In this document: positions 45,271-55,740 of the stretch, in pieces
Numbering within the stretch: the first letter of the stretch is position 1
Layout of the letters: the number at the start of each line of letters is the position of its first letter
Source: Bacteroidota bacterium
GTDB lineage: Bacteria; Bacteroidota; Ignavibacteria; UBA10030
Direction of reading: 5' to 3'
Length of the DNA: 64,000 nucleotides
Assembly: GCA_026416125.1 (NCBI GenBank)
Contig: JAOAFT010000001.1
Span: 1-64,000, forward strand
Notes under the pieces: generated by a model
The model's database searches: none
Told to the model about the DNA's origin: nothing
What the model saw: the letters and a program-made list of their open reading frames with translations, nothing else
Program-made: the position numbers and the translations under genes

Positions 45271-45909
45271 TTAAAGCAGTTTTTCTTGTTGTCGTTTTGC
45301 AATCATCGATACTATTTTCGTAACAATCATATCAATCGCTACTGTATTTTCAGCTCCTCGTGGTATGATGATATCTGCCCAATGTTTACTGGGTTCAACA
45401 AATTCAATATGCATTGGTTTTACTGTTGTGAGGTACTGCTCCATGATACTTTGAACAGATCGACCTCGTTCAGTAATATCTCGTTGAATTCTCCGAATTA
45501 AACGCTCGTCGGCATCTGTATCAACGAAAATTTTAAGATCCATGAACTTGCGCAATGCTTTATCAACAAAAATGAGAATTCCATCGATGATAATTATATC
45601 TTTTGGCTCAACTCGACGTGTTTCTTTCATACGTCGATGTGTTGCAAAATTATAAATTGGTTGCTCAATCGCTTTCCCTGCACAAAGTGATTGTATATCT
45701 CGAACAAGGAGTTCTGTATCGAGCGAATCAGGATGATCGAAATTAATTTTTTCGGGCGGAGTGCCTTGATAGTAACTTAAATCTTTGTAGTATGAATCAT
45801 GTTGTATAAGTACAACTTTTTGTGGATCAAGTTGTTCAACAATGCGGTGGGCTACCGATGTTTTTCCAGAACCAGTTCCTCCAGCGATTCCAATAACAAA
45901 AGGTTTCAT
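45271..45909 (-). CDS. udk: uridine kinase
   Basis: 212 residues from ATG 45909 (an upstream TTG is also in frame). Phosphorylates uridine and cytidine with ATP or GTP in pyrimidine salvage. P-loop GIAGGTGSGKTSVA at residues 6-19, HDSYYKDLSYYQGTPPEKINFDHPDSLD near 36-63 (substrate side), PIYNFATHRR near 82, IIIDGILIFVD near 100 and RLIRRIQRDITERGRS near 128. First gene of the minus-strand run that starts at about 45.9 kb. Confidence 0.95.
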   Translation of the reverse strand: MKPFVIGIAGGTGSGKTSVAHRIVEQLDPQKVVLIQHDSYYKDLSYYQGTPPEKINFDHPDSLDTELLVRDIQSLCAGKAIEQPIYNFATHRRMKETRRVEPKDIIIIDGILIFVDKALRKFMDLKIFVDTDADERLIRRIQRDITERGRSVQSIMEQYLTTVKPMHIEFVEPSKHWADIIIPRGAENTVAIDMIVTKIVSMIAKRQQEKLL

Positions 45910-45994
45910 AGTAATCAAGATAGAAAAGTTACACTCATAAATGTTATGATCAATTTTATGAGAAGCAAGAAATAATTTGTTGTATTGTTTTCGT

Positions 45995-46022
45995 TTGAAA
46001 AACAGAAGACTTTTTGTAATCT
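45995..46022 (+). promoter_or_regulatory. sigma70-like promoter of the glycan cluster
   Basis: TTGAAA at 45995-46000 and TAATCT at 46017-46022 are 16 bases apart. The predicted start is only a few bases before the ATG at 46032, so the first transcript may be nearly leaderless. Confidence 0.45.
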
Positions 46023-46031
46023 TGGCATTGT

Positions 46032-47135
46032 ATGGTAATTATAATTATTCTTGTGCTATCTGCAGTTATCTATCTTGTTGTGCATATTGCACTTTACCGT
46101 GGACTTTCTCAGATCAGCTTCCAACCACAAACTGAAGTACCGTTTGTTTCTATAATTATCGCTGCGCGGAATGAAGAAAAACATTTACCACGTTTACTCA
46201 GTGCACTATCTTCCCAGTCGTACCCACACTACGAAATAATTATTGCTAACGATCGATCAACAGATAGCACGGCTGTCATTCTAGAAAAGGCACAACATGA
46301 GTACCCCAATTTACGGGTTATAACTATTACTGATTACTCAACGAACTTACCTCCTAAAAAAAATGCTCTCACTCTGGCTATCCAAGCAGCACGCGGTGAA
46401 ATACTTTGTTTCACAGATGCAGACTGTATACCACAACAAAATTGGCTCTATGAACTTGTTTCCGCATTCGAACCATCAGTAGGATTAGTTGCAGGTTACT
46501 CCCCCTACATGATTGGAGAGAGCGCTACAGTTTTGTCATACTTTGTGGCATACGAAGAGTTTAGAGCTGCAGTGTGGTCAGCAGGAGCAATTGGATTGCG
46601 ATTAGCATGGTTGTGTACTGGCAGAAATTTAGCATACCGAAAGCGTGTATTTGAAGAAGTTGGTGGGTACGAAGCCACAAAGATGTCAATAAGCGGCGAC
46701 GATGATTTATTCCTTCAAACAGTTCGCCGTAAAACAAAGTGGCACATTCGATATGTCACTAAGCCACAATCTCATGTTACGACGTATCCACCATCAACAC
46801 TGAAACAATTTATTGAACAACGAAAACGACACTTTTCAGCGGCACGGTTCTTTTCACTCCGTATGAAAATCTTTTTTGTATTATATCACGGAGCAAATAC
46901 ATTTATTTTTTTTATGTTTCTTATAGGTTTTTTTAATCAGTCATTTATCTATTGGTGTCTAGGTGGGTATTGTACAAAGCTTCTTGCTGATCATTTACTT
47001 TTGCACAAAGGTGCTTCAATACTGGAGGAACGAAAATTTCTCAAATGGTTTATCCCTATGGAAATATTGTATATATTCTACAACGCAATTATCGGACCAC
47101 TTGGTCTCGTTTTTAAATTTTCATGGAAACAATAG
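46032..47135 (+). CDS. membrane-bound family 2 glycosyltransferase
   Basis: 367 residues. One N-terminal helix (residues 1-22), a cytoplasmic GT-A domain, then C-terminal helices (about 282-310, 340-360). Motifs: PFVSIIIAARNEEKHLPRLL near 38, IIANDRSTDS near 70, CFTDADCIP near 130 and GDDDLFLQT near 227. The place of the processive QxxRW motif reads QRKRH, so the tryptophan is missing. Such enzymes make or extend lipid-linked or secreted glycans. First of six overlapping genes; it overlaps the next by 13 bases. Confidence 0.82.
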   Translation: MVIIIILVLSAVIYLVVHIALYRGLSQISFQPQTEVPFVSIIIAARNEEKHLPRLLSALSSQSYPHYEIIIANDRSTDSTAVILEKAQHEYPNLRVITITDYSTNLPPKKNALTLAIQAARGEILCFTDADCIPQQNWLYELVSAFEPSVGLVAGYSPYMIGESATVLSYFVAYEEFRAAVWSAGAIGLRLAWLCTGRNLAYRKRVFEEVGGYEATKMSISGDDDLFLQTVRRKTKWHIRYVTKPQSHVTTYPPSTLKQFIEQRKRHFSAARFFSLRMKIFFVLYHGANTFIFFMFLIGFFNQSFIYWCLGGYCTKLLADHLLLHKGASILEERKFLKWFIPMEILYIFYNAIIGPLGLVFKFSWKQ

Positions 47136-48088
47136 TAAACCGATCAATGTCAACACACCAATATATTCGTCCATTATTTATTTTTATCATAAAAATAGTT
47201 ATTACCCTCTTTTTACTTTATTGGGTACAAACTCTTGTTGATCTCAATCACCTCATAGAACTATTTTTTACTGCACGATACGAGTTTATTGTAGTAGGAT
47301 TCTTACTTGTACCTCTAAATGTTGGCTTACGTATTTATCGTTGGAAAATCCTTGTTTCTTCACTTGGTATAAGCATTGACTGGAAAACTGCAACAAATTC
47401 ACTTCTTGTTGGTATAGCTCTAGGAAGTTTTACACCTGGTGAAATAGGAGATTATCTTGGAAGAATGCTGCATCTCCCCAAAGCGCGGAAATCACAGATT
47501 GTTGGACTCACTGTTCTTGATAGGTTACAAACAATGCTCGCTATGGCTCTCTTTGCTATTCCTACGCTTGCATTTCTTTTTTTTAATGATCATTGGATTT
47601 TAATAGGTAGTCTTTCACTGTTGAGTATACTATCACTTTACTTCCTTTTGGGCAATCAATTTTCATTTCTTGTACATCGTTTTCAAAACATTCGGTATGT
47701 AGGTTCAATGTCGGCAACACTTTTTAAATTAAAAAAACGGCAACAGGTAATATCATTTTGTTTGATTATCTTTTTAATCCTTGTAATTGGCATACAAATG
47801 CATTGCTTTTTGAATGCATTCGTTAGTATCCCTTTCTACGTAAGCGTTCTAGGTTGCTCAGCAATGCTATTTATAAAATCTTTCGTACCGATCAGCATTG
47901 GCGATTTAGGAATTCGTGAGTTAACAACGGTTTACATCTTTTCATTGTGGACTGTACCAATGAGCGCATCTATCAATGCTTCGCTTTTATTATTCACTGC
48001 GAATGTATTTTCTCCTGCATGTTGTGGAGTCCTTGTTTTATTCTTAACAAACCATACGAATATTTCAACCCTTTTTCGAAATGATTGA
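47123..48088 (+). CDS. lysylphosphatidylglycerol synthase TM / AglD-type (UPF0104) membrane protein
   Basis: 321 residues with about eight hydrophobic helices. SFTPGEIGDYLGRMLHLPKA near 107 and SFVPISIGDLGIRELTTVYIF near 255 are the two family-specific loops. The family covers the membrane domain of MprF and proteins near glycosyltransferases that may move lipid-linked sugars across the membrane. The soluble MprF synthase domain is absent. Position between GT2 genes supports a flippase-like or accessory part in glycan assembly; this is inference. Confidence 0.82.
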   Translation: METIVNRSMSTHQYIRPLFIFIIKIVITLFLLYWVQTLVDLNHLIELFFTARYEFIVVGFLLVPLNVGLRIYRWKILVSSLGISIDWKTATNSLLVGIALGSFTPGEIGDYLGRMLHLPKARKSQIVGLTVLDRLQTMLAMALFAIPTLAFLFFNDHWILIGSLSLLSILSLYFLLGNQFSFLVHRFQNIRYVGSMSATLFKLKKRQQVISFCLIIFLILVIGIQMHCFLNAFVSIPFYVSVLGCSAMLFIKSFVPISIGDLGIRELTTVYIFSLWTVPMSASINASLLLFTANVFSPACCGVLVLFLTNHTNISTLFRND

Positions 48089-49220
48089 AGCCATTCTCTT
48101 AACACTATTAGCTTTAACTACACTGTTTTACTTTTTCTTCTTAACTCGTGTACATATCGGGTTATGTCGACTTACACAACATTCTCCCAGGCTTCAAGGA
48201 TACCCTTTTATAAGTGTTATTATTGCAGCCAGGAACGAAGAAACTACAATTGGGCAATGTCTTCACTCGGTACTTACCCAAGAATACCCTATCAACCGAT
48301 TTGAGGTTATCGTTGTAGATGATCACTCAACAGATCACACTGTACAACGTGTGCAGGATTTACAACGTGGGTATTCAAATCTAAAGCTACTCCATAATAA
48401 CAATAGTGGAAAAACCAGTGCGATTACCTTAGGTATTAGTAAAGCAAGAGGTGAAATTATTGCAACAACCGATGCTGATTGTACTGTAACTCCACAATGG
48501 TTATTACGAATTGCATCGCATTTTAGAGAAGGAACTGTGCTAGTAGCAGGTCCGGTTGTTTATGACAACTCACCCACACGAGGTTCACCACTTACGGATT
48601 TTGATAGAATTGAACTGTTAGGACTTGTAACTGTTGCTGCTGGCTTAATTGGCGTTGGTCGTCCTATTATTTGCAATGGAGCCAATTTAGCCTATAAAAA
48701 ATCTACATTTCTTCTAGTAGGAGGATTTGGAACCAGTAGTGTCGATAATGATGATGAATTGTTAATGAGTCGCTTCCTAGAAAAAAACTTAGGCACAATT
48801 GACTTTATGTGGGAACCAGATGCACTTGTAACAACAAAGCAAATGAACACACTCCGTTCGTTTTTATTCCAACGTATTCGTTGGGCTTCAAAAAAGGGGC
48901 ACTATAATGATAGGACTGTTTTCATTGAGTTAACTCTCCTTTATTTCTTTTTTGCTTCACTCTTTATTAACCTTCTTGTTGGATTTTTATGGGATACCAT
49001 GGTTCTTTTACCTGTTGGACTCGCTTATGGAGGTAAAATTATCTTAGATTACTTTACTCTTCGATTAGGTGCTGATCTTTGGAAACAGCATTTACCCATT
49101 CCAATGTTCTTTCTTGCAGAGATTTTCCATGTTCCGTATATTGTGATTGTTGCATGTATAGCTCAATGTATTTCAATTCGCTGGAAAGGTAGAATAAAAA
49201 CGTGTGAGAGCACCTGTTAA
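48081..49220 (+). CDS. membrane-bound family 2 glycosyltransferase
   Basis: 379 residues, same design as the gene at 46.0 kb: helix at 1-22, GT-A domain with PFISVIIAARNEET (near 48), VVDDHSTDHT (near 78), TTDADCTVTPQW (near 132), VDNDDELLMSR (near 222) and an intact QRIRW (near 262), then C-terminal helices. QxxRW is the hallmark of processive enzymes such as cellulose, chitin and poly-GlcNAc synthases. Overlaps its neighbours by 8 and 17 bases. The sugar cannot be told. Confidence 0.83.
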   Translation: MIEAILLTLLALTTLFYFFFLTRVHIGLCRLTQHSPRLQGYPFISVIIAARNEETTIGQCLHSVLTQEYPINRFEVIVVDDHSTDHTVQRVQDLQRGYSNLKLLHNNNSGKTSAITLGISKARGEIIATTDADCTVTPQWLLRIASHFREGTVLVAGPVVYDNSPTRGSPLTDFDRIELLGLVTVAAGLIGVGRPIICNGANLAYKKSTFLLVGGFGTSSVDNDDELLMSRFLEKNLGTIDFMWEPDALVTTKQMNTLRSFLFQRIRWASKKGHYNDRTVFIELTLLYFFFASLFINLLVGFLWDTMVLLPVGLAYGGKIILDYFTLRLGADLWKQHLPIPMFFLAEIFHVPYIVIVACIAQCISIRWKGRIKTCESTC

Positions 49221-49812
49221 ACTTTTTCGAAAGATATTCCCTACTCTCCTTTGTACTATTCCATCAACCTCACTTTACTTAACATTTGATGATGGGCCAT
49301 CGCAATTTACTACTGAAGCAATTCTTGAACTGCTTAAGCAATTTGATATTCGTGCAACGTTTTTTGTCCTGGGAGTTAATGTACGGCGTTACCCAGCTTT
49401 ACTTGAACGTATAGCAAAGCATCAACATACAATAGGGAATCACTCATACATGCATACCTCTTTCTTGTTCAAGCAAAAGTCGTTGGTAACCGAAGAAATC
49501 GAGTCAACAAATCGACTCATTGAAAATATCGTTGGTTACAAGCCAAAGTACTTTCGTCCTCCGTATGGGCATATAACGATATCGCTCCTTCAAATGGTTC
49601 GATCTCTAGGAATGGAAACAGTACTCTGGTCCTTTGATCCCAAAGACTATAAACGAACACCAAAAACATTAACTAAAATTAAATTGCATAAAATTAAGAA
49701 GGGCGATATAATCTTATGTCATGATAATTTATCTCAACAAGTTGCGTTACCACTAGTCCGTACGATTATCGACTATGCTAACCAAAATTCTCTACAATTT
49801 TTGCCTTTATGA
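49204..49812 (+). CDS. NodB-type polysaccharide deacetylase
   Basis: 202 residues, GTG start inside the preceding gene. Catalytic and metal residues: TFDDGPSQ (D-D pair near 26), GNHSYMHTS (H-x-x-x-H near 80), RPPYGH (near 119) and ILCHDN (near 176). It is a carbohydrate esterase family 4 enzyme that removes N-acetyl groups from GlcNAc-type sugars. There is no convincing signal peptide, only a short mildly hydrophobic start, so it may act in the cytosol or at the inner face on a lipid-linked product of the neighbouring GT2 enzymes. Confidence 0.9.
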   Translation: MRAPVKLFRKIFPTLLCTIPSTSLYLTFDDGPSQFTTEAILELLKQFDIRATFFVLGVNVRRYPALLERIAKHQHTIGNHSYMHTSFLFKQKSLVTEEIESTNRLIENIVGYKPKYFRPPYGHITISLLQMVRSLGMETVLWSFDPKDYKRTPKTLTKIKLHKIKKGDIILCHDNLSQQVALPLVRTIIDYANQNSLQFLPL

Positions 49813-50900
49813 GTATTGAATTATTCGTTTTTATTTTTACTATCTGCTACATTGCTTTAGTAGGTATTTTCATTATTGGCCTACAACGACCTCGAGACAA
49901 CGATGGAGGAGCTCGACCATTCGTTTCAATTGTAATTGCTGCACGCAATGAAGAAAAGACATTGCCCTTGTGCCTTCGTACTGTGCTTAATCAGACATAT
50001 CCACCGGATCTATTCGAGGTGATTGTCGCAAACGATAACTCGACCGATAATACGGAGGAAATATGCAAAGAATTTTCTACCAAACATCCAAATTTCTCAT
50101 ACATTAATGTTCAAGAAAGCTTATATGCCCTTGGAAAAGCTAATGCACTAGCTCATGGCATTGAGAAGGCACGAGGTGAGGTTATTCTTATTACTGATGC
50201 CGACTGTATAGTACCACCTACTTGGGTAGAACATACAGCTCGACGATTTGAGTCATCAATAGGTCTTTCCGGCGGAATAACTTTACCCCAAAGTACAAAT
50301 TGGTTTTCAGGTTTGCAGACACTTGATTGGGCATTTACGTTAGCAATGGCTGCTTCAACTGCAGCGCTTGGGAGTCAGCATGGAAGCATCGGTAATAATC
50401 TTGCATTTCGCAAACATGCCTACAACGCGATTGGTGGGTACCGAAAACTTAAATTCAGTGTAACAGAAGATTATACGCTTGTTCAAGCCATAATCAATAC
50501 AAAACAATGGGACTACATTTACCCTATCGACCCGAATGTACTTGTAACGACACAAGCGTGCGATACACTCCGATCGTTGGTTCGTCAAAAACATCGTTGG
50601 GGAAAGGGTGCACTCGATATGAAAGCTTCTGGTTTTGCGATCTTTACAATTGGTTACTTCATGCATGTATCGATTGTTACCCTTTTCCTACTTACCGAAT
50701 TTTTAAGCGCTGCAACTGTATCGTTAGTTAAAGTAACCATGGACTATATCTTTCTTTATAAGTTTTTGAAAAAGCTCGGTAAACAAAACGAGTTGCGGTG
50801 GTTTTACTACTTTGAAATCTATTTCTTTATTTACGTACTGACGTTACCACTACTTGTATTCTTTGGCGGAAAAGTACAATGGAAGGATCGAAAATTCTAG
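49809..50900 (+). CDS. membrane-bound family 2 glycosyltransferase
   Basis: 363 residues, third of the cluster. Helix 1-24, PFVSIVIAARNEEKTLPLCL near 38, VANDNSTDNT near 72, ITDADCIVPPTW near 128, VTEDYTLVQA near 220, QKHRWGKGALDM near 260 (intact QxxRW) and C-terminal helices. The first three blocks are close to those of the other two, so the three are probably duplicates. Start overlaps the deacetylase stop by four bases (ATGA); end overlaps the PHP gene by 22. Confidence 0.83.
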   Translation: MSIELFVFIFTICYIALVGIFIIGLQRPRDNDGGARPFVSIVIAARNEEKTLPLCLRTVLNQTYPPDLFEVIVANDNSTDNTEEICKEFSTKHPNFSYINVQESLYALGKANALAHGIEKARGEVILITDADCIVPPTWVEHTARRFESSIGLSGGITLPQSTNWFSGLQTLDWAFTLAMAASTAALGSQHGSIGNNLAFRKHAYNAIGGYRKLKFSVTEDYTLVQAIINTKQWDYIYPIDPNVLVTTQACDTLRSLVRQKHRWGKGALDMKASGFAIFTIGYFMHVSIVTLFLLTEFLSAATVSLVKVTMDYIFLYKFLKKLGKQNELRWFYYFEIYFFIYVLTLPLLVFFGGKVQWKDRKF

Positions 50901-52519
50901 CCATACTTCAGCAAATCCTTTCACTTTCTCCGTTATTATTTTTGTATGCAGAAATACATTATTCGTTTAAATACTTTATAAGTCTTTTAAAAAAACGCGA
51001 GCCCGAAATTATTGCCGATGCTCCACACCGGATTACTTACGGTGAGCCCCTCCCAATTTTATTGCTAATAAAAGATGCGCACGCTTACCCTATCACACTT
51101 AAGTCCGTTACAATTTCAATTCGCTCTCTGCAAAGTAATAGACTATGGACCGATCACAACGTATTTGCTGGTTCTGAGTTTATTAGTACAAAGTGGTGGT
51201 GGAGAATTTTTTGGTTGAAATTACCTGAAGGTACAAGCGGAGCTATTGAGTGCGATACCGTAGTAACTATCGATGTTAATGGCCAAACACGTATATATCG
51301 AAATGATAACTACCGCACCACCAGTCATAAGCCATTAAGAATTTACATTTCAAAAACTACCCTACCTACCTATAAAAACTTATATTTAGGTGAAATTCAT
51401 TCACATTCATATTACACTGAAGATCAAGTCGAATTTGGAGCACCACTTGAACCAACAGCAATCTTAGCACGGTCATTGGGACTAACCTACTTTGCTGTTA
51501 CCGATCATTCATATGACCTCGATGACGATCTAGATAACTATCTTTCCAATAATCCTGAACAACCTAAATGGCAGCTATTATTACGCGAAGTGGAACGAAT
51601 ACAGGGTAGATACACGACTATTCTTGCTGGTGAAGAGGTCAGTTGCCGAAATCAACGAAATAAGAATGTACATTTTCTTATTATTAACAACAAAGAATTT
51701 ATTCCTGGAAGTGGTGATAGTGCTGAACGATGGTTTAAAACACAATCAGAATTTTCAATCGAAGAAATTCTTAAAGTTGTTAATGCAAAAGACATACTCT
51801 ACATACCAGCACATCCATTTGAAAAAGTATCATTTCTTCAGTCAATTTTTCTCAACCGAGACACGTGGAACAATAGCGACTTTTCAGATAATATATTTGA
51901 TGGAATTCAATTTATTAATGGTGCCTTAAAAAAATATGACACATTAAGTTATAGCAAATGGATTCAATTATTACTTGAAGGAAAAAGATTACCACTTTTT
52001 GCTGGGAATGATGCCCATGGGAATTTTAATCGCTATAGGCAAATTCTAGTACCATTTTTACTTATGCACGAAAATAATGGTCACATTTTTGGGAAATTTC
52101 GAACAGGGATCTTTTCTCCAACAAATTCAGTACACGATTTGATTAGATCTGCTAAAGAAGGTAAAACGATTGCTTCGGATGGTCCAGTAGCAAATATACA
52201 AACAAGTTATAAGCATCACGATACACTCCTTGGTCAAACCATTAGCACACCACTTACTGATCTGGTAATAACAGCACTTTCGACTGAAGAGTTTGGCGCA
52301 CTCGATAAAATCATTTTATATGGCGGTATTGTTGGACAAACTAAGGAAGTAACTGTTTTTCTGAAAAAAAATCTTCAATCAATGAATTTTTCGCACATTG
52401 TTACTGCTAAATTCCATGAATTTAATTATGTGAGACTTGAAGTTTATACAGTTCAAGGAAAGCAAGATGACAAATCTCACTTTTGTTTAACAAGTCCAAT
52501 ATGGTTTCAAAAGTCATAA
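50879..52519 (+). CDS. membrane-anchored PHP-domain metal hydrolase (CehA/McbA-like)
   Basis: 546 residues. A weakly hydrophobic N-terminus (about 5-30) is followed by a beta-rich domain (about 45-160). The PHP part starts near 170: LGEIHSHSYYTEDQVEFG (H-x-H), FAVTDHSYDLDDD (near 208), LAGEEVSCRN, VHFLIINN, YIPAHPFEK near 305 and AGNDAHGNFN near 377, which together supply the usual metal ligands. A further beta-sandwich ends the protein. Such proteins hydrolyse phosphoesters or carbamate-like esters. Clustering with GT2 and deacetylase genes suggests a glycan or lipid substrate, unproven. Confidence 0.78.
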   Translation: MEGSKILAILQQILSLSPLLFLYAEIHYSFKYFISLLKKREPEIIADAPHRITYGEPLPILLLIKDAHAYPITLKSVTISIRSLQSNRLWTDHNVFAGSEFISTKWWWRIFWLKLPEGTSGAIECDTVVTIDVNGQTRIYRNDNYRTTSHKPLRIYISKTTLPTYKNLYLGEIHSHSYYTEDQVEFGAPLEPTAILARSLGLTYFAVTDHSYDLDDDLDNYLSNNPEQPKWQLLLREVERIQGRYTTILAGEEVSCRNQRNKNVHFLIINNKEFIPGSGDSAERWFKTQSEFSIEEILKVVNAKDILYIPAHPFEKVSFLQSIFLNRDTWNNSDFSDNIFDGIQFINGALKKYDTLSYSKWIQLLLEGKRLPLFAGNDAHGNFNRYRQILVPFLLMHENNGHIFGKFRTGIFSPTNSVHDLIRSAKEGKTIASDGPVANIQTSYKHHDTLLGQTISTPLTDLVITALSTEEFGALDKIILYGGIVGQTKEVTVFLKKNLQSMNFSHIVTAKFHEFNYVRLEVYTVQGKQDDKSHFCLTSPIWFQKS

Positions 52520-52571: not shown

Positions 52572-52970
52572 ATGAAGAATACTTTTAATAAACTAGCAAA
52601 ACGGGCACTTGCTGCTCGAAAACGTGCGTATGTTCCTTATTCAAATTTCCACGTAGGTGCTGCACTTTTATGTAAATCTGGTAAAATATACACAGCATGT
52701 AATATTGAAAATAGCTCTTTTAGTCTCACTATATGTGCAGAACGCGTTGTTTTATATAAAGCAATTTCAGATGGAGAGCTTTCGTTTGAAGCAATTGCAG
52801 TAGCATCTGATAGTGACGAGTATACAAGACCCTGTGGAGCATGTCGTCAAGTAATTTTAGAGCTTGCTGGGAATATTCCATGTATAATGGTTAATAACAA
52901 AGGAAATTATGAGGTAAATCTTCTGAATATTCTTTTACCAGAAGCATTTACAAAAAATCATTTAAAGTAA
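52572..52970 (+). CDS. cdd: cytidine deaminase
   Basis: 132 residues, the small homotetrameric type. Deaminates cytidine and deoxycytidine. Zinc and catalytic residues: [13 protein letters not shown] (Cys and Glu, near 56) and PCGACRQV (two Cys, near 87). Also [15 protein letters not shown] near 19 and CNIENSSF near 46 for the substrate. First gene of cdd-tdk-nupC-purine nucleoside phosphorylase; one base separates it from tdk. Confidence 0.95.
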
Positions 52971-52971
52971 A

Positions 52972-53559
52972 ATGGATACTCTTTCTCTACACCATGTTCC
53001 CTCAGATATTGGTTGGATCGAAGTGATTTGCGGTTGCATGTTTAGCGGAAAGACTGAGGAATTAATCCGACGTCTTCGACGTGCTGAAATTGCAAGGCAA
53101 AAGATTGCTGTGTTTAAACCAATTCTTGATACGAGATATAGTGCAAATCATATTGTTTCTCACACCGATCAGTTCTTGAATTCTATACTAGTTGCTGACC
53201 CCCACGAAATTGTGGAACATTCACACGATGCGCAAGTAGTTGGTATTGATGAAGCTCAATTTTTTAACGATGATATAATAAATGTGTGCGAACTATTGGC
53301 TAACAATGGGAAGCGAGTTATTGTAGCAGGTTTAGATCAAGATTATCGTGGCAAGCCATTTGGTCCTATCCCCTATCTTTTAGCAATAGCTGAATACATA
53401 ACCAAAACACTCGCCATATGTGTTGTGTGTGGTAATCCAGCTGATCGTACTCAACGAAAAACAAAAGCAAAAGACATCGTAATCGTAGGTGCAAAAGATA
53501 TCTACGAAGCACGGTGTAGGAAATGTCATCAACCCAATGTGGATGAGTTAGAATCATGA
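52972..53559 (+). CDS. tdk: thymidine kinase (type II)
   Basis: 195 residues. Phosphorylates thymidine with ATP. P-loop [19 protein letters not shown] (near 23), [12 protein letters not shown] (near 88, catalytic Glu), [19 protein letters not shown] (near 110), and four zinc cysteines (CVVCG near 144 and CRKC near 184). Start follows cdd by one base. The stop overlaps nupC by four bases. Confidence 0.96.
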
Positions 53560-54905
53560 ATTTTGAATCGCTTAGCCGAGGAATAGTAGGTATCGTACTT
53601 TTACTCCTCATAGCATTTCTTTTTTCAAACAACAAACGAAGAATCCAATGGAAAATGGTGCTAACAGCAGTGGGGATCCAGTTTTTATTTGCAATTTTCA
53701 TCATTCATGGTGAAACGCTTCGTAAAGTATTTTATCCTTTAGGACTACCAAAGGACATTCTCAATTGGTTAGGTAGTGTATTCGTTTCCCTTTTGCATTT
53801 TACTGCGGAAGGTTCAACTTTTGTTTTTGGGCGTTTGGCTATCAACAATACACCTGATAGTCTCGGTGTATTTTTTGCCTTTCAAGTACTCCCAACTATT
53901 ATTTTTATATCTTCTGTAACATCGATTCTCTACTATCTTGGTATTCTTCAACTTGTAGTAAAAGGAATGGCCTGGATCATGGCAAAGCTTCTTGGTACAA
54001 GTGGAGCCGAATCTCTCTCAAATTCTGCGAATATTTTTGTTGGACAGACAGAAGCTCCGCTTCTAATTCGACCATACATTGGAAAGATGACAAATTCTGA
54101 ATTGTTAACGATTATGGTGGGTGGTATGGCAACAATCGCGGGTGGTGTAATGGCAAGTTACATACAAATGCTAGGTCAAGCTTATGCCGTTGCTAATAAC
54201 ATTGATCTTTCAGAGGCACAAATTAAGTTTGCAGTTCAACTCCTAGCTGCTAGCACAATGGCAGCACCTGCTTCTCTTGCAATTTCAAAAATTCTTTTTC
54301 CAGAAACTGAAGAACCGGTCACACGTGGTACTATAAAAATAAAAGTTGAAAAAAATGCCTCAAACATTATTGAGGCTGCGGCAACAGGAGCAAGCGAAGG
54401 ACTCCAATTAGCGCTTAACGTCGCTGCTATGTTAATCGCTTTTATAGCACTAATTGCTTTTTTGAACCATATACTCATTGGAATTGGTGATATTGTCGGA
54501 ATCAACGAATGGTTAACACAGAAGTATAATAGTCCTCTCTCGCTTCAACTACTGTTAGGCTTTATCCTTCAATTCATCGCAATTGGAATTGGTGTTCCAT
54601 GCAGTGATGCTTTTTACTTCGGAAGTTTAATTGGAACAAAGATAGCACTGAATGAATTTGTCGCTTACCTTGATATGTCGAAGCTTGTCCAAACTGGTGT
54701 GCTTACCGAAAAAGGAATAGTTATGGCAACCTATGCCCTTTGTGGTTTTGCAAATTTTGCTTCTGTTGCTATTCAAATCGGCGGTATAAGTCCCCTAGCA
54801 CCTGAACGAAAGAAGGATATTTCAGCACTTGGATTAAAAGCTGTTCTTGGTGGGACATTAGCAAACCTTATGACAGCGACACTTGCAGGAATTCTTTTAG
54901 GATAA
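53556..54905 (+). CDS. nupC: NupC-family concentrative nucleoside transporter
   Basis: 449 residues with about ten hydrophobic segments. Family regions seen: [19 protein letters not shown] (near 133), [19 protein letters not shown] (near 152, substrate loop), [20 protein letters not shown] (near 174), and [23 protein letters not shown] near 280. CNT transporters import nucleosides with sodium or protons. Place in the cdd-tdk operon fits pyrimidine and purine nucleoside uptake for salvage. Confidence 0.94.
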
Positions 54906-54909
54906 ATGG

Positions 54910-55740
54910 ATGGAATCCGATCTCTCTAACGCTATTCAACATATTCGTTCAATAACGTCACTTCAGCCTAAGGTTGCTGTTGTACTTGGCTCGGGTTTAG
55001 GCAATTTTGCATCGTTGATTACTCCAAGCTGTATACTAAGCACAACTGACATACCAGGTTATCCACAATCGTCAGTTGCGGGACATGCTGGTCGTTTGAT
55101 ATTTGGAACTATTCAATCAGGAGACTCTGTATCACCGCATCTCCTTGTGTTTCAAGGTCGGGTACATTTCTACGAATGTGGTTCATTGGAACTTGTAACA
55201 TACCCAATCCGAATTGCGTCAAGCTTGGGCGTACGACTCCTTATTCTTACGAACGCAGCAGGTGGCATTAATTCAACATTTAAGCAGGGTGACATTATGG
55301 CAATTCATAGTTTTATAAACTTTTCATTTCTCAGTATCCCAACAGTACAAGACCATCAACAAGTTGATAGAACTGTTACTCTACGATATCCTGATCAAAA
55401 ATTATACAAACATCTTATTTCATGTGCTCGTGAGCAAAAATTACCACTTCGAGAAGGGACTTATTGTTGGGTACAAGGTCCATCATATGAAACAGCTGCA
55501 GAGATCAAAATGTTAAAAATACTTGGTGCAGACGCTGTAGGTATGAGTACAGTTCCTGAAATTCTTACAGCACTTCAGCTCAAAATGAAAGTGTGCGCAC
55601 TATCGCTTATATCAAACCTTGGCACTGGATTGTCGCACGCTAAACTTTCACATCAAGAAGTAACTGAAGCTGCAGAACGAGCGAAGGATACATTTGTTCC
55701 GTTTCTTAAACGTGTTCTTTTGACGCTTAATCATTATTAA
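54910..55740 (+). CDS. punA: purine nucleoside phosphorylase (trimeric type)
   Basis: 276 residues. Cleaves purine nucleosides with phosphate. AVVLGSGLGNFA near 23 (phosphate Ser), VAGHAGRLIFG near 57, FQGRVHFYEC near 79, LTNAAGGIN near 115, VQGPSYETAAEIKMLK near 188 (base Glu), DAVGMSTVPE near 209 and SLISNLGTGLS near 236 (Asn that selects 6-oxopurines). These are features of the PunA/XapA trimeric family acting on inosine and guanosine. Four bases after nupC. Confidence 0.94.
   Translation: MESDLSNAIQHIRSITSLQPKVAVVLGSGLGNFASLITPSCILSTTDIPGYPQSSVAGHAGRLIFGTIQSGDSVSPHLLVFQGRVHFYECGSLELVTYPIRIASSLGVRLLILTNAAGGINSTFKQGDIMAIHSFINFSFLSIPTVQDHQQVDRTVTLRYPDQKLYKHLISCAREQKLPLREGTYCWVQGPSYETAAEIKMLKILGADAVGMSTVPEILTALQLKMKVCALSLISNLGTGLSHAKLSHQEVTEAAERAKDTFVPFLKRVLLTLNHY

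What the first reader, a model, noticed from the sequence alone, without database searches (positions are those of the whole stretch)
46032..52519. Six-gene overlapping cluster that looks like an unassigned glycan assembly pathway
Three membrane GT2 enzymes, an AglD/UPF0104-type multi-helix protein, a NodB deacetylase and a membrane-anchored PHP hydrolase overlap by 4 to 22 bases each, with one promoter-like site at 45995. Known poly-GlcNAc operons (pga/ica) have one GT2, one deacetylase and accessory proteins; hyaluronan and cellulose operons lack a deacetylase. I know no named pathway with this set. A deacetylated amino-sugar polymer or glycolipid is an inference.
Basis: partly seen in the sequence, partly recalled or inferred. 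Interest (0 to 1): 0.55.

Follow-up and report, generated by a model that had tools for sequence, protein, structure and literature searches.

The report
Conserved amino-sugar glycan assembly operon
Six overlapping genes that look like a small sugar-building line at the inner membrane (three sugar-adding enzymes, a possible lipid flippase, an enzyme that strips acetyl groups, and a metal-dependent hydrolase) recur together in distantly related bacteria, yet their product is unknown, so this is a real but unassigned pathway.

Summary
The six-gene run is real: three membrane GT2s (here GT_A, GT_B, GT_C), a PF03706 flippase-like protein, a NodB deacetylase and a PHP-fold metallohydrolase, overlapping by 4-22 nt. 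The promoter at 45995 was not reproduced; a conserved membrane anchor on PHP is not supported. The cluster is not local. All six genes in this order occur in 6 of 9 same-family loci, related sets in another family and in KSB1, Caldithrix and Zixibacteria loci, and a PF03706-GT_B-NodB-GT_C core in other Bacteroidota. The GT2s fall into separate groups far from E. coli PgaC. In the class, 28 of 30 sampled genomes with this NodB carry it directly 5' of a GT_C-type gene. NodB shows no clear export signal and the genome has no PgaB glycosidase domain, so this is not pga. Most likely it builds a membrane-linked amino-sugar glycan, more probably glycolipid or lipid-linked oligosaccharide than secreted polymer, deacetylated in the cytoplasm and then flipped. 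Donor, acceptor and the PHP step are inferred; ceramide as general acceptor is weakened. Six paper searches aimed at it found no description.

The parts
46032..47135 (+). GT_A: membrane GT2 glycosyltransferase (hydrophobic N-terminal segment, GT2 domain, two C-terminal hydrophobic segments); D-x-S-x-D, TDAD, GDDD and QRxRH motifs
   Evidence: PF00535 89.3 bits; invariant columns; hydropathy; group with sequences from other phyla
47123..48088 (+). LPGTM: PF03706 multi-helix membrane protein, flippase-like
   Evidence: PF03706 74.3 bits, cut-off 33.4; TIGR00374 31.4 bits, below cut-off 43.2; 7 hydrophobic segments
48081..49220 (+). GT_B: membrane GT2 glycosyltransferase with QRxRW motif
   Evidence: PF00535 116.4 bits; group shared with other Bacteroidota and KSB1-type loci
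49204..49812 (+). NodB-type polysaccharide deacetylase, no clear signal or TM segment, GTG start
   Evidence: PF01522 124 bits; T-F-D-D-G-P, H80, H84 and R118-P-P invariant in 16 sequences
49809..50900 (+). GT_C: membrane GT2 glycosyltransferase (1 N-terminal and 3 C-terminal long helices in the model), ED, QxxRW and C-terminal WK motifs
   Evidence: NodB directly 5' of a GT_C-type gene in 28 of 30 class genomes that have this NodB
50879..52519 (+). PHP-fold metallohydrolase between two beta-rich domains, with invariant N-terminal Y23, E25, H27
45919..46031 (.). 113-nt intergenic region between a divergent uridine kinase-like gene (45271-45918, - strand) and GT_A; the likely promoter region (inferred)
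   Evidence: promoter-like matches in the region not above chance

Best explanation
The operon makes a short amino-sugar glycan on a membrane lipid (a glycolipid or lipid-linked oligosaccharide). GT_A, GT_B and GT_C, three GT2 subfamilies, add sugars one after another on the cytoplasmic face of the inner membrane. NodB, tied genetically to GT_C and probably cytoplasmic, removes the N-acetyl group from the sugar that GT_C handles, leaving a free amine. The PF03706 protein moves the product to the outer leaflet. The PHP metallohydrolase makes a hydrolytic cut on the same product or its carrier, probably in the cytoplasm. Shown: the genes, their families, intact motifs, conserved linkage, separate GT groups, the NodB-GT_C linkage. 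Inferred: donor (UDP-GlcNAc), acceptor lipid, order of steps, the cytoplasmic place of NodB and PHP, flipping, the PHP reaction and the final location.
For: Linkage: 23 of the 30 loci with PHP score >= 676 and >= 5 kb upstream carry >= 2 GT2 + NodB + PF03706, as do 4 of the 25 lower-scoring loci with >= 5 kb (L089 KSB1, L098 Caldithrix, L107 Zixibacteria, L110 BMS3Bbin03). GT tree: GT_A, GT_B and GT_C groups (support 0.54, 0.96, 0.87) each hold sequences from other phyla, separated from PgaC by a branch of 2.74. NodB directly 5' of a GT_C-type gene in 28 of 30 class genomes with NodB, 10 of 84 in other classes. NodB: only 18-38 residues (median 27) before the catalytic motif in 30 homologues, 12-residue hydropathy there median 1.11, maximum 1.91, against 1.87-2.87 in 7 known or presumed exported controls. 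GT_C: among the 60 of 63 solved-structure matches shown, ceramide glucosyltransferase 26qf/26qs (E 8e-19) is the only one whose best stretch spans the profile, 8-365 of 365; with the C-terminal half alone its match covers 46-214 of 215. GT_C model: 1 + 3 long helices, against 2 N-terminal hydrophobic segments in E. coli PgaC. No GHL13 (PgaB glycosidase domain) in the genome.
Against: By structure GT_C is also close to hyaluronan synthase (TM up to 0.73 by query). With the C-terminal half, cellulose synthase scores better (E 1e-5) than ceramide glucosyltransferase (E 2.4e-4), though only over 48-131. The Pfam name GT21 does not discriminate: E. coli PgaC hits PF13506 at 47.6 bits. NodB's best solved relatives are peptidoglycan GlcNAc deacetylases, so another substrate is possible. 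A Wzi-type capsule protein lies in a KSB1 locus, one of six loci with that protein cluster. 14 of the 25 lower-scoring PHP loci with >= 5 kb upstream have no GT2 nearby. In f5 loci such as L042 GT_C itself is missing while NodB stays. No acceptor lipid is identified: an SPT-like score > 400 bits is absent from 4 of 32 genomes searched, two with this cluster (G012, G053) and two with the four-gene core (G335, G174).
Confidence: 0.42

Rival explanations
1. Synthase-dependent exopolysaccharide: one or more of the GT2s is processive and extrudes a partly deacetylated poly-amino-sugar, while the other genes modify or trim it.
For: GT_B and GT_C have the QxxRW motif; Foldseek puts GT_C near hyaluronan and cellulose synthases; best NCBIfam model for all three GT2s is PgaC/IcaA, though below cut-off; Wzi-family protein in a KSB1 locus; DUF1207-type gene beside the cluster in 9 of 11 f5 loci and in class relatives; cellulose synthase matches the C-terminal half of GT_C.
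Against: No PgaA/PgaB/PgaD equivalent in the cluster; no GHL13 in the genome; NodB without clear export signal; several GT2 groups rather than one synthase; ceramide glucosyltransferase matches GT_C over its whole length.
Confidence: 0.27
2. Amino-glycosphingolipid: the acceptor is ceramide, as in the aminoglycosphingolipid reported for Chlorobium limicola (Jensen 1991, seen only as cited in passages of PMC11762602).
For: GT_C matches ceramide glucosyltransferase full length; the genome has a serine palmitoyltransferase-like enzyme whose best solved match is a serine palmitoyltransferase (3a2b/8guh) at 383 bits, next 274 (NCBIfam 471 bits, below cut-off 640).
Against: 28 of 32 genomes searched have an SPT-like score > 400 (none over the cut-off of 640) whether or not they have the cluster, and G012 and G053 have the cluster without it. 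Presumed Chlorobiaceae genomes G124 and G155 (identity guessed from genome size) have no NodB of this type at E <= 1e-30.
Confidence: 0.1
3. Polyprenyl-phosphate-sugar pathway: the GT2s load sugars on an isoprenoid carrier, PF03706 flips it, and the sugar is used for protein or surface glycosylation, perhaps of type IX secreted proteins whose genes lie nearby in relatives.
For: GT2s are also close to the mannosyltransferase PcManGT; PF03706-type flippases of lipid-linked sugars are known in archaea (recalled); PorV/PorQ-like proteins (tested member 84.2 bits, just below the cut-off of 90) lie downstream in many relatives.
Against: Those downstream genes do not follow the cluster in the window, where cdd-, tdk-, nupC- and pnp-like genes do; I saw no oligosaccharyltransferase in the cluster, but did not search the genome for one.
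Confidence: 0.12
4. A chance operon of genes with unrelated roles.
For: Members come and go: NodB missing in L039 and L040, only PHP left in L036, only GT_C left in the f2, f3, f4 and f6 loci looked at.
Against: Recurrence across families and phyla, the 22-nt GT_C/PHP overlap seen again in L035, L039 and L048, and the NodB-GT_C linkage in the class.
Confidence: 0.05

Closest known systems
pgaABCD / icaADBC (poly-GlcNAc)
   Same: A GT2 of the same superfamily plus a PF01522 deacetylase
   Different: Three GT2s, 25-27% identical to PgaC over 239-249 residues; deacetylase without GHL13 domain and without clear signal; no porin or PgaD; a PF03706 protein and a PHP hydrolase are added
HpnI-HpnK-HpnJ (bacteriohopanetetrol glucosamine / cyclitol ether; pathway recalled)
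   Same: GT2 + deacetylase logic on a lipid, and a radical SAM gene in some relatives; GT_C scores 78.6 bits to HpnI
   Different: Far below the HpnI cut-off of 310; no squalene-hopene cyclase match in the genome; HpnK is a different deacetylase family (recalled); three of four radical SAM proteins tested score best to PTO1314, and HpnJ is not among the best 25 models shown for any of the four
nodABC (lipochitooligosaccharide)
   Same: NodC-type GT2 motifs and a NodB-type deacetylase
   Different: NodB 122 bits against cut-off 240, NodC 53.5 and 39.8 against 550; no NodA-like gene recognised in the cluster
Holdfast synthesis, HfsH (Caulobacter)
   Same: Deacetylase reported cytosolic, proposed to act on precursors of a lipid-linked glycan that is then flipped (passages of PMC5362036)
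   Different: HfsH model 16.1 bits against cut-off 400; no Wzx/Wzy/Wza-type gene recognised in this cluster
Ceramide glucosyltransferase (26qf; GT21 by recall)
   Same: Match of GT_C over the whole profile, to the C-terminal end
   Different: Accompanied by deacetylase, PHP and further GT2s; ceramide acceptor not supported in all carriers

Membership tests
pga/ica operon | GT2 scoring above the PgaC/IcaA model cut-off | tested here: not met
   83.8, 97.9 and 89.6 bits against 422.3
pga/ica operon | PgaB-type deacetylase with GHL13 domain | tested here: not met
   No PF14883 match in the genome, E. coli control rings; NodB is 202 aa with PF01522 and no GHL13
pga/ica operon | Exported deacetylase | tested here: inconclusive
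   Hydropathy only, no signal-peptide program. 0 of 30 NodB pass the 19-residue threshold, but PgaB itself also fails it. With 12 residues NodB has median 1.11 and maximum 1.91, exported controls 1.87-2.87, cytoplasmic ones 0.22-1.85
Hopanoid glucosamine pathway (HpnI) | HpnI equivalog score and a hopene cyclase in the genome | tested here: not met
   63.8, 42.5, 78.6 bits against 310; no PF13243 match
nodABC | NodB and NodC equivalog scores | tested here: not met
   122.1 against 240; 53.5 (GT_B) and 39.8 (GT_C) against 550
GT21 ceramide glucosyltransferase | PF13506 match | tested here: inconclusive
   GT_A 52.3, GT_B 27.5, GT_C 51.6 bits over the cut-off 21.7, but PgaC also hits at 47.6
GT21 ceramide glucosyltransferase | Ceramide as acceptor | not testable with these tools
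   Indirect only: no SPT-like score > 400 in two cluster carriers
CehA/McbA metallohydrolase | NF038032 cut-off | tested here: not met
   63.9 bits against 80
PHP superfamily | PHP fold with conserved candidate metal ligands | tested here: met
   Z 18.1, 200 residues, rmsd 2.5 to 2anu; H174, H176, D209, H210, H312, D378 and H380 invariant in 64 sequences, E252 and H265 in 90% or more; that these bind metal is recalled from the family
PF03706 flippase-like family | Pfam cut-off | tested here: met
   74.3 bits against 33.4; NCBIfam TIGR00374 31.4 is below its 43.2; flippase activity not testable here
CE4 (NodB-type) deacetylase | PF01522 and catalytic motifs | tested here: met
   124 bits; D29, D30, H80, H84 and R118-P-P invariant in 16 sequences

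The most novel reading that the evidence does not exclude
An undescribed class of amino-sugar membrane glycolipids, built by three dedicated GT2 subfamilies, deacetylated in the cytoplasm, flipped by a PF03706 protein and finished by a new PHP-hydrolase family, ancient in the Ignavibacteria-Calditrichota-KSB1-Zixibacteria group, with simpler versions across Bacteroidota.
Probability: 0.26. Interest if true: 0.65.

Novelty: new variant of a known kind. Interest (0 to 1): 0.42.

Why it matters
The gene set has a core (PF03706, GT_B, NodB, GT_C) found in more than one class of what is, by record titles, Bacteroidota, including a 3.7 Mb single-contig genome, so the product may be a widespread but unassigned envelope component. 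A deacetylated amino sugar would put positive charge on the surface, which could affect membrane behaviour, antimicrobial peptide sensitivity and adhesion. Because the core also occurs in single-contig genomes, it may be testable in a cultured relative.

Tried and rejected
Single-protein scan of genome contigs with the PF03706 protein found no relative; the scan with the PHP alignment did. Hopanoid pathway: no hopene cyclase match, rejected. pga pathway: rejected. Ceramide acceptor as the general answer: lowered. Type IX secretion glycolipid anchor: followed because PMC7468200 came up; its one passage on a polysaccharide deacetylase concerns gene neighbourhoods with an exosortase in other bacteria, so it gives no support. 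PF13506 as evidence for GT21: rejected after the PgaC control. Foldseek's first 50 rows for the PHP model have TM 0.13-0.24 by query and were not used; VIA-align then gave PHP-domain proteins on top. No PDB sequence relative of PHP or of the PF03706 protein was found beyond weak hits. Sigma-70 promoter and terminator scans: no more than chance. Literature: ten searches; six were aimed at this kind of operon and gave no description of it, four were on related enzymes or lipids. The library holds only open-licence PubMed Central papers and I saw the listings. Papers: passages only, of PMC7468200, PMC5362036, PMC5219744, PMC11762602 and PMC10626005. In PMC5219744 three GT2 genes and one polysaccharide deacetylase of Lutibacter are taken as poly-GlcNAc genes by annotation; their locus tags are not adjacent.

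First hydropathy test of NodB: it also misses the signal of PgaB, so it was repeated with a shorter window and controls; the result leans to no export but is not clean.

The two exceptions in the class are G035, where a MJ1255-type GT stands after NodB, and G239. In other classes 5 more genomes have a match within about 3 kb upstream of NodB; the two looked at (L212, L213) show a GT_B-type gene there. One search used score thresholds that I chose; its split is by PHP score, not by taxonomy. The tree holds only ORFs of 330-440 aa scoring > 150 bits, without X.
Full report
1. What is there. Six + strand genes overlap by 13, 8, 17, 4 and 22 nt between 46032 and 52519: GT_A, a PF03706 protein (LPGTM), GT_B, NodB, GT_C and PHP. 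GT_A, GT_B, GT_C, LPGTM, U6, U7 and similar names are mine. A uridine kinase-like gene is divergent upstream; cytidine deaminase-, thymidine kinase-, NupC- and purine nucleoside phosphorylase-like genes follow on the same strand (these names are my reading of the translations). A promoter at 45995 was not reproduced, and promoter-like and terminator-like sites are no more frequent than in shuffles.

2. The enzymes look intact. NodB keeps D29-D30, H80, H84 and R118-P-P in all 16 aligned sequences. PHP keeps H174, H176, D209-H210, H312, D378 and H380 in 64 sequences, with E252 and H265 in 90% or more, and an unusual invariant N-terminal Y23, E25, H27. The GT2s keep D-x-S-x-D, TDAD-type and QxxR(W/H) motifs. 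That these are the metal and catalytic residues is recalled from the families.

3. Conservation. PHP is in 49 of 100 genomes searched (the window's own included): 28 of the 32 listed members of family f1, 21 of 22 of family f5, and none of the 46 others. Among the 9 f1 loci of the 20 that I fetched, 6 have all six genes in the window's order, two lack NodB and one has PHP alone. All 11 f5 loci add a further glycosyltransferase (U6; one member tested: PF04101/PF13528, MJ1255-type) before PHP, and 9 of the 11 add a U7 gene after it (one member tested: DUF1207). In families f2, f3, f4 and f6 I looked at 10 loci, all with GT_C but none of the other cluster genes in the stretch; 5 have uridine kinase directly beside it and 8 are followed by the U8 gene that also follows the cluster in some f1 and f5 loci, so the place on the chromosome is mostly the same.

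4. Beyond the order. A scan of one genome for each of 84,980 species with the PHP alignment found 246 relatives, 80 kept. Titles name Ignavibacteria, KSB1, Caldithrix/Calditrichota, Zixibacteria, Gemmatimonadetes and Latescibacterota among others. Of the 40 loci with PHP score >= 676, 30 have >= 5 kb upstream: 29 have a GT2 and 23 have >= 2 GT2 + NodB + PF03706. Of the 40 lower-scoring loci, 25 have >= 5 kb: 11 have a GT2 and 4 have the full combination; 14 have no GT2. So PHP is broader than the pathway. In 10 loci PHP follows a radical SAM gene of one cluster (K4), and six loci (five titled KSB1) have a K8 gene whose tested member is a Wzi-family protein. In a sample of 395 genomes of the phylum, 14 have PHP at E <= 1e-20.

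5. The core. Five class relatives (L167, L169, L177, L178, L185; 5 of the 20 loci) carry PF03706-GT_B-NodB-GT_C in a row, followed by U7 (after a radical SAM-type gene in L169, and after a 340-aa gene with a weak radical SAM-profile score in L185). L179 and L181, from other classes of the phylum, have the same four-gene order, L179 with a 446-nt gap. In the 296-genome phylum sample, NodB of this type is in 114 genomes and strong GT_C-type matches in 109. In the window's class 28 of 30 genomes with NodB have it directly 5' of a GT_C-type gene, whereas 72 have GT_C; in other classes 10 of 84. In the class, then, NodB goes with GT_C, not the reverse. In other Bacteroidota similar NodB genes often sit elsewhere, for example beside a roughly 1,100-aa membrane protein.

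6. Several GT2 subfamilies. A tree of 155 GT2s with E. coli PgaC as outgroup gives a GT_C group (74 tips, support 0.87), a GT_A group (42 tips, 0.54; 41 of them 0.91), a GT_B group (28 tips, 0.96) and a further group of 11 tips, largely f5 loci (0.98). The GT_A, GT_B and GT_C groups each hold sequences from other phyla. One gene labelled GT_B by profile (L107) falls in the GT_A group.

7. Polymer or lipid? For lipid: no PgaB domain was found, NodB shows no clear export signal, and the only solved structure that matches the whole GT_C profile is a ceramide glucosyltransferase, which reaches the C-terminal end when that half is used alone, though cellulose synthase has the better E-value over a shorter stretch. 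For polymer: GT_C's model is close to hyaluronan synthase and outer-membrane-type genes occur in some clusters. NodB's best solved relatives are peptidoglycan deacetylases, so the substrate is open. Ceramide as general acceptor is weakened because SPT-like enzymes occur with or without the cluster and are missing (score > 400) in G012 and G053, which have it. I put the membrane-linked glycan at 0.42 (0.45 before the export control) and the polymer at 0.27 (0.25 before).

8. PHP. The model has a short N-terminal helix, a beta-rich domain (about 39-160), a PHP domain (about 166-436) and a C-terminal beta-rich domain. Only 12 of 76 homologues have a TM-like N-terminus by hydropathy; the residues after it carry a mean net charge of +1.9, which suits a cytoplasmic, peripheral protein but does not show it. 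Its substrate is unknown.

9. Known systems. None tested fits: pga/ica, HpnI, nodABC, HfsH and CehA/McbA all score below their cut-offs. Six paper searches aimed at such an operon found no description. HfsH gives a precedent for a deacetylase reported as cytosolic and proposed to act on precursors (passages of PMC5362036). The result is an unassigned pathway of known enzyme types: a new variant of a known kind.

Noticed in passing
L150, L151, L155, L162, L163 (with L152, L156, L157, L160, L161): In families without PHP, GT_C stands without the other cluster genes, in 5 of 10 loci directly divergent from uridine kinase, so either the cluster was reduced to GT_C or grew around it.
   Followed up: partly
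L085 (KSB1) and L111 (Caldithrix): PHP overlaps a radical SAM gene upstream, with no GT2 in the stretch, which hints at a role of PHP outside this pathway.
   Followed up: no
G000:C2:30000-47000 (locus L199): Two other NodB-type deacetylases of the genome lie among glycosidase-like secreted proteins with type IX-like C-terminal ends (my reading of the translations): looks like a hemicellulose degradation locus.
   Followed up: no
L200, L201, L204, L205, L209: In other Bacteroidota a similar NodB gene lies directly after a 1,076-1,112 aa ORF; the one read (L200) looks like a DUF2723 membrane protein (recalled, not tested).
   Followed up: no
L213: In another class of the phylum the order is GT_B, a 406-aa ORF, NodB, then a U6-type glycosyltransferase in the place of GT_C, as in some f5 loci.
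   Followed up: no
window 52572-55740: In the window a nucleoside salvage set (cdd, tdk, nupC, pnp by my reading) follows the cluster after 52 nt; none of these four was found in the 20 relatives' stretches fetched.
   Followed up: no
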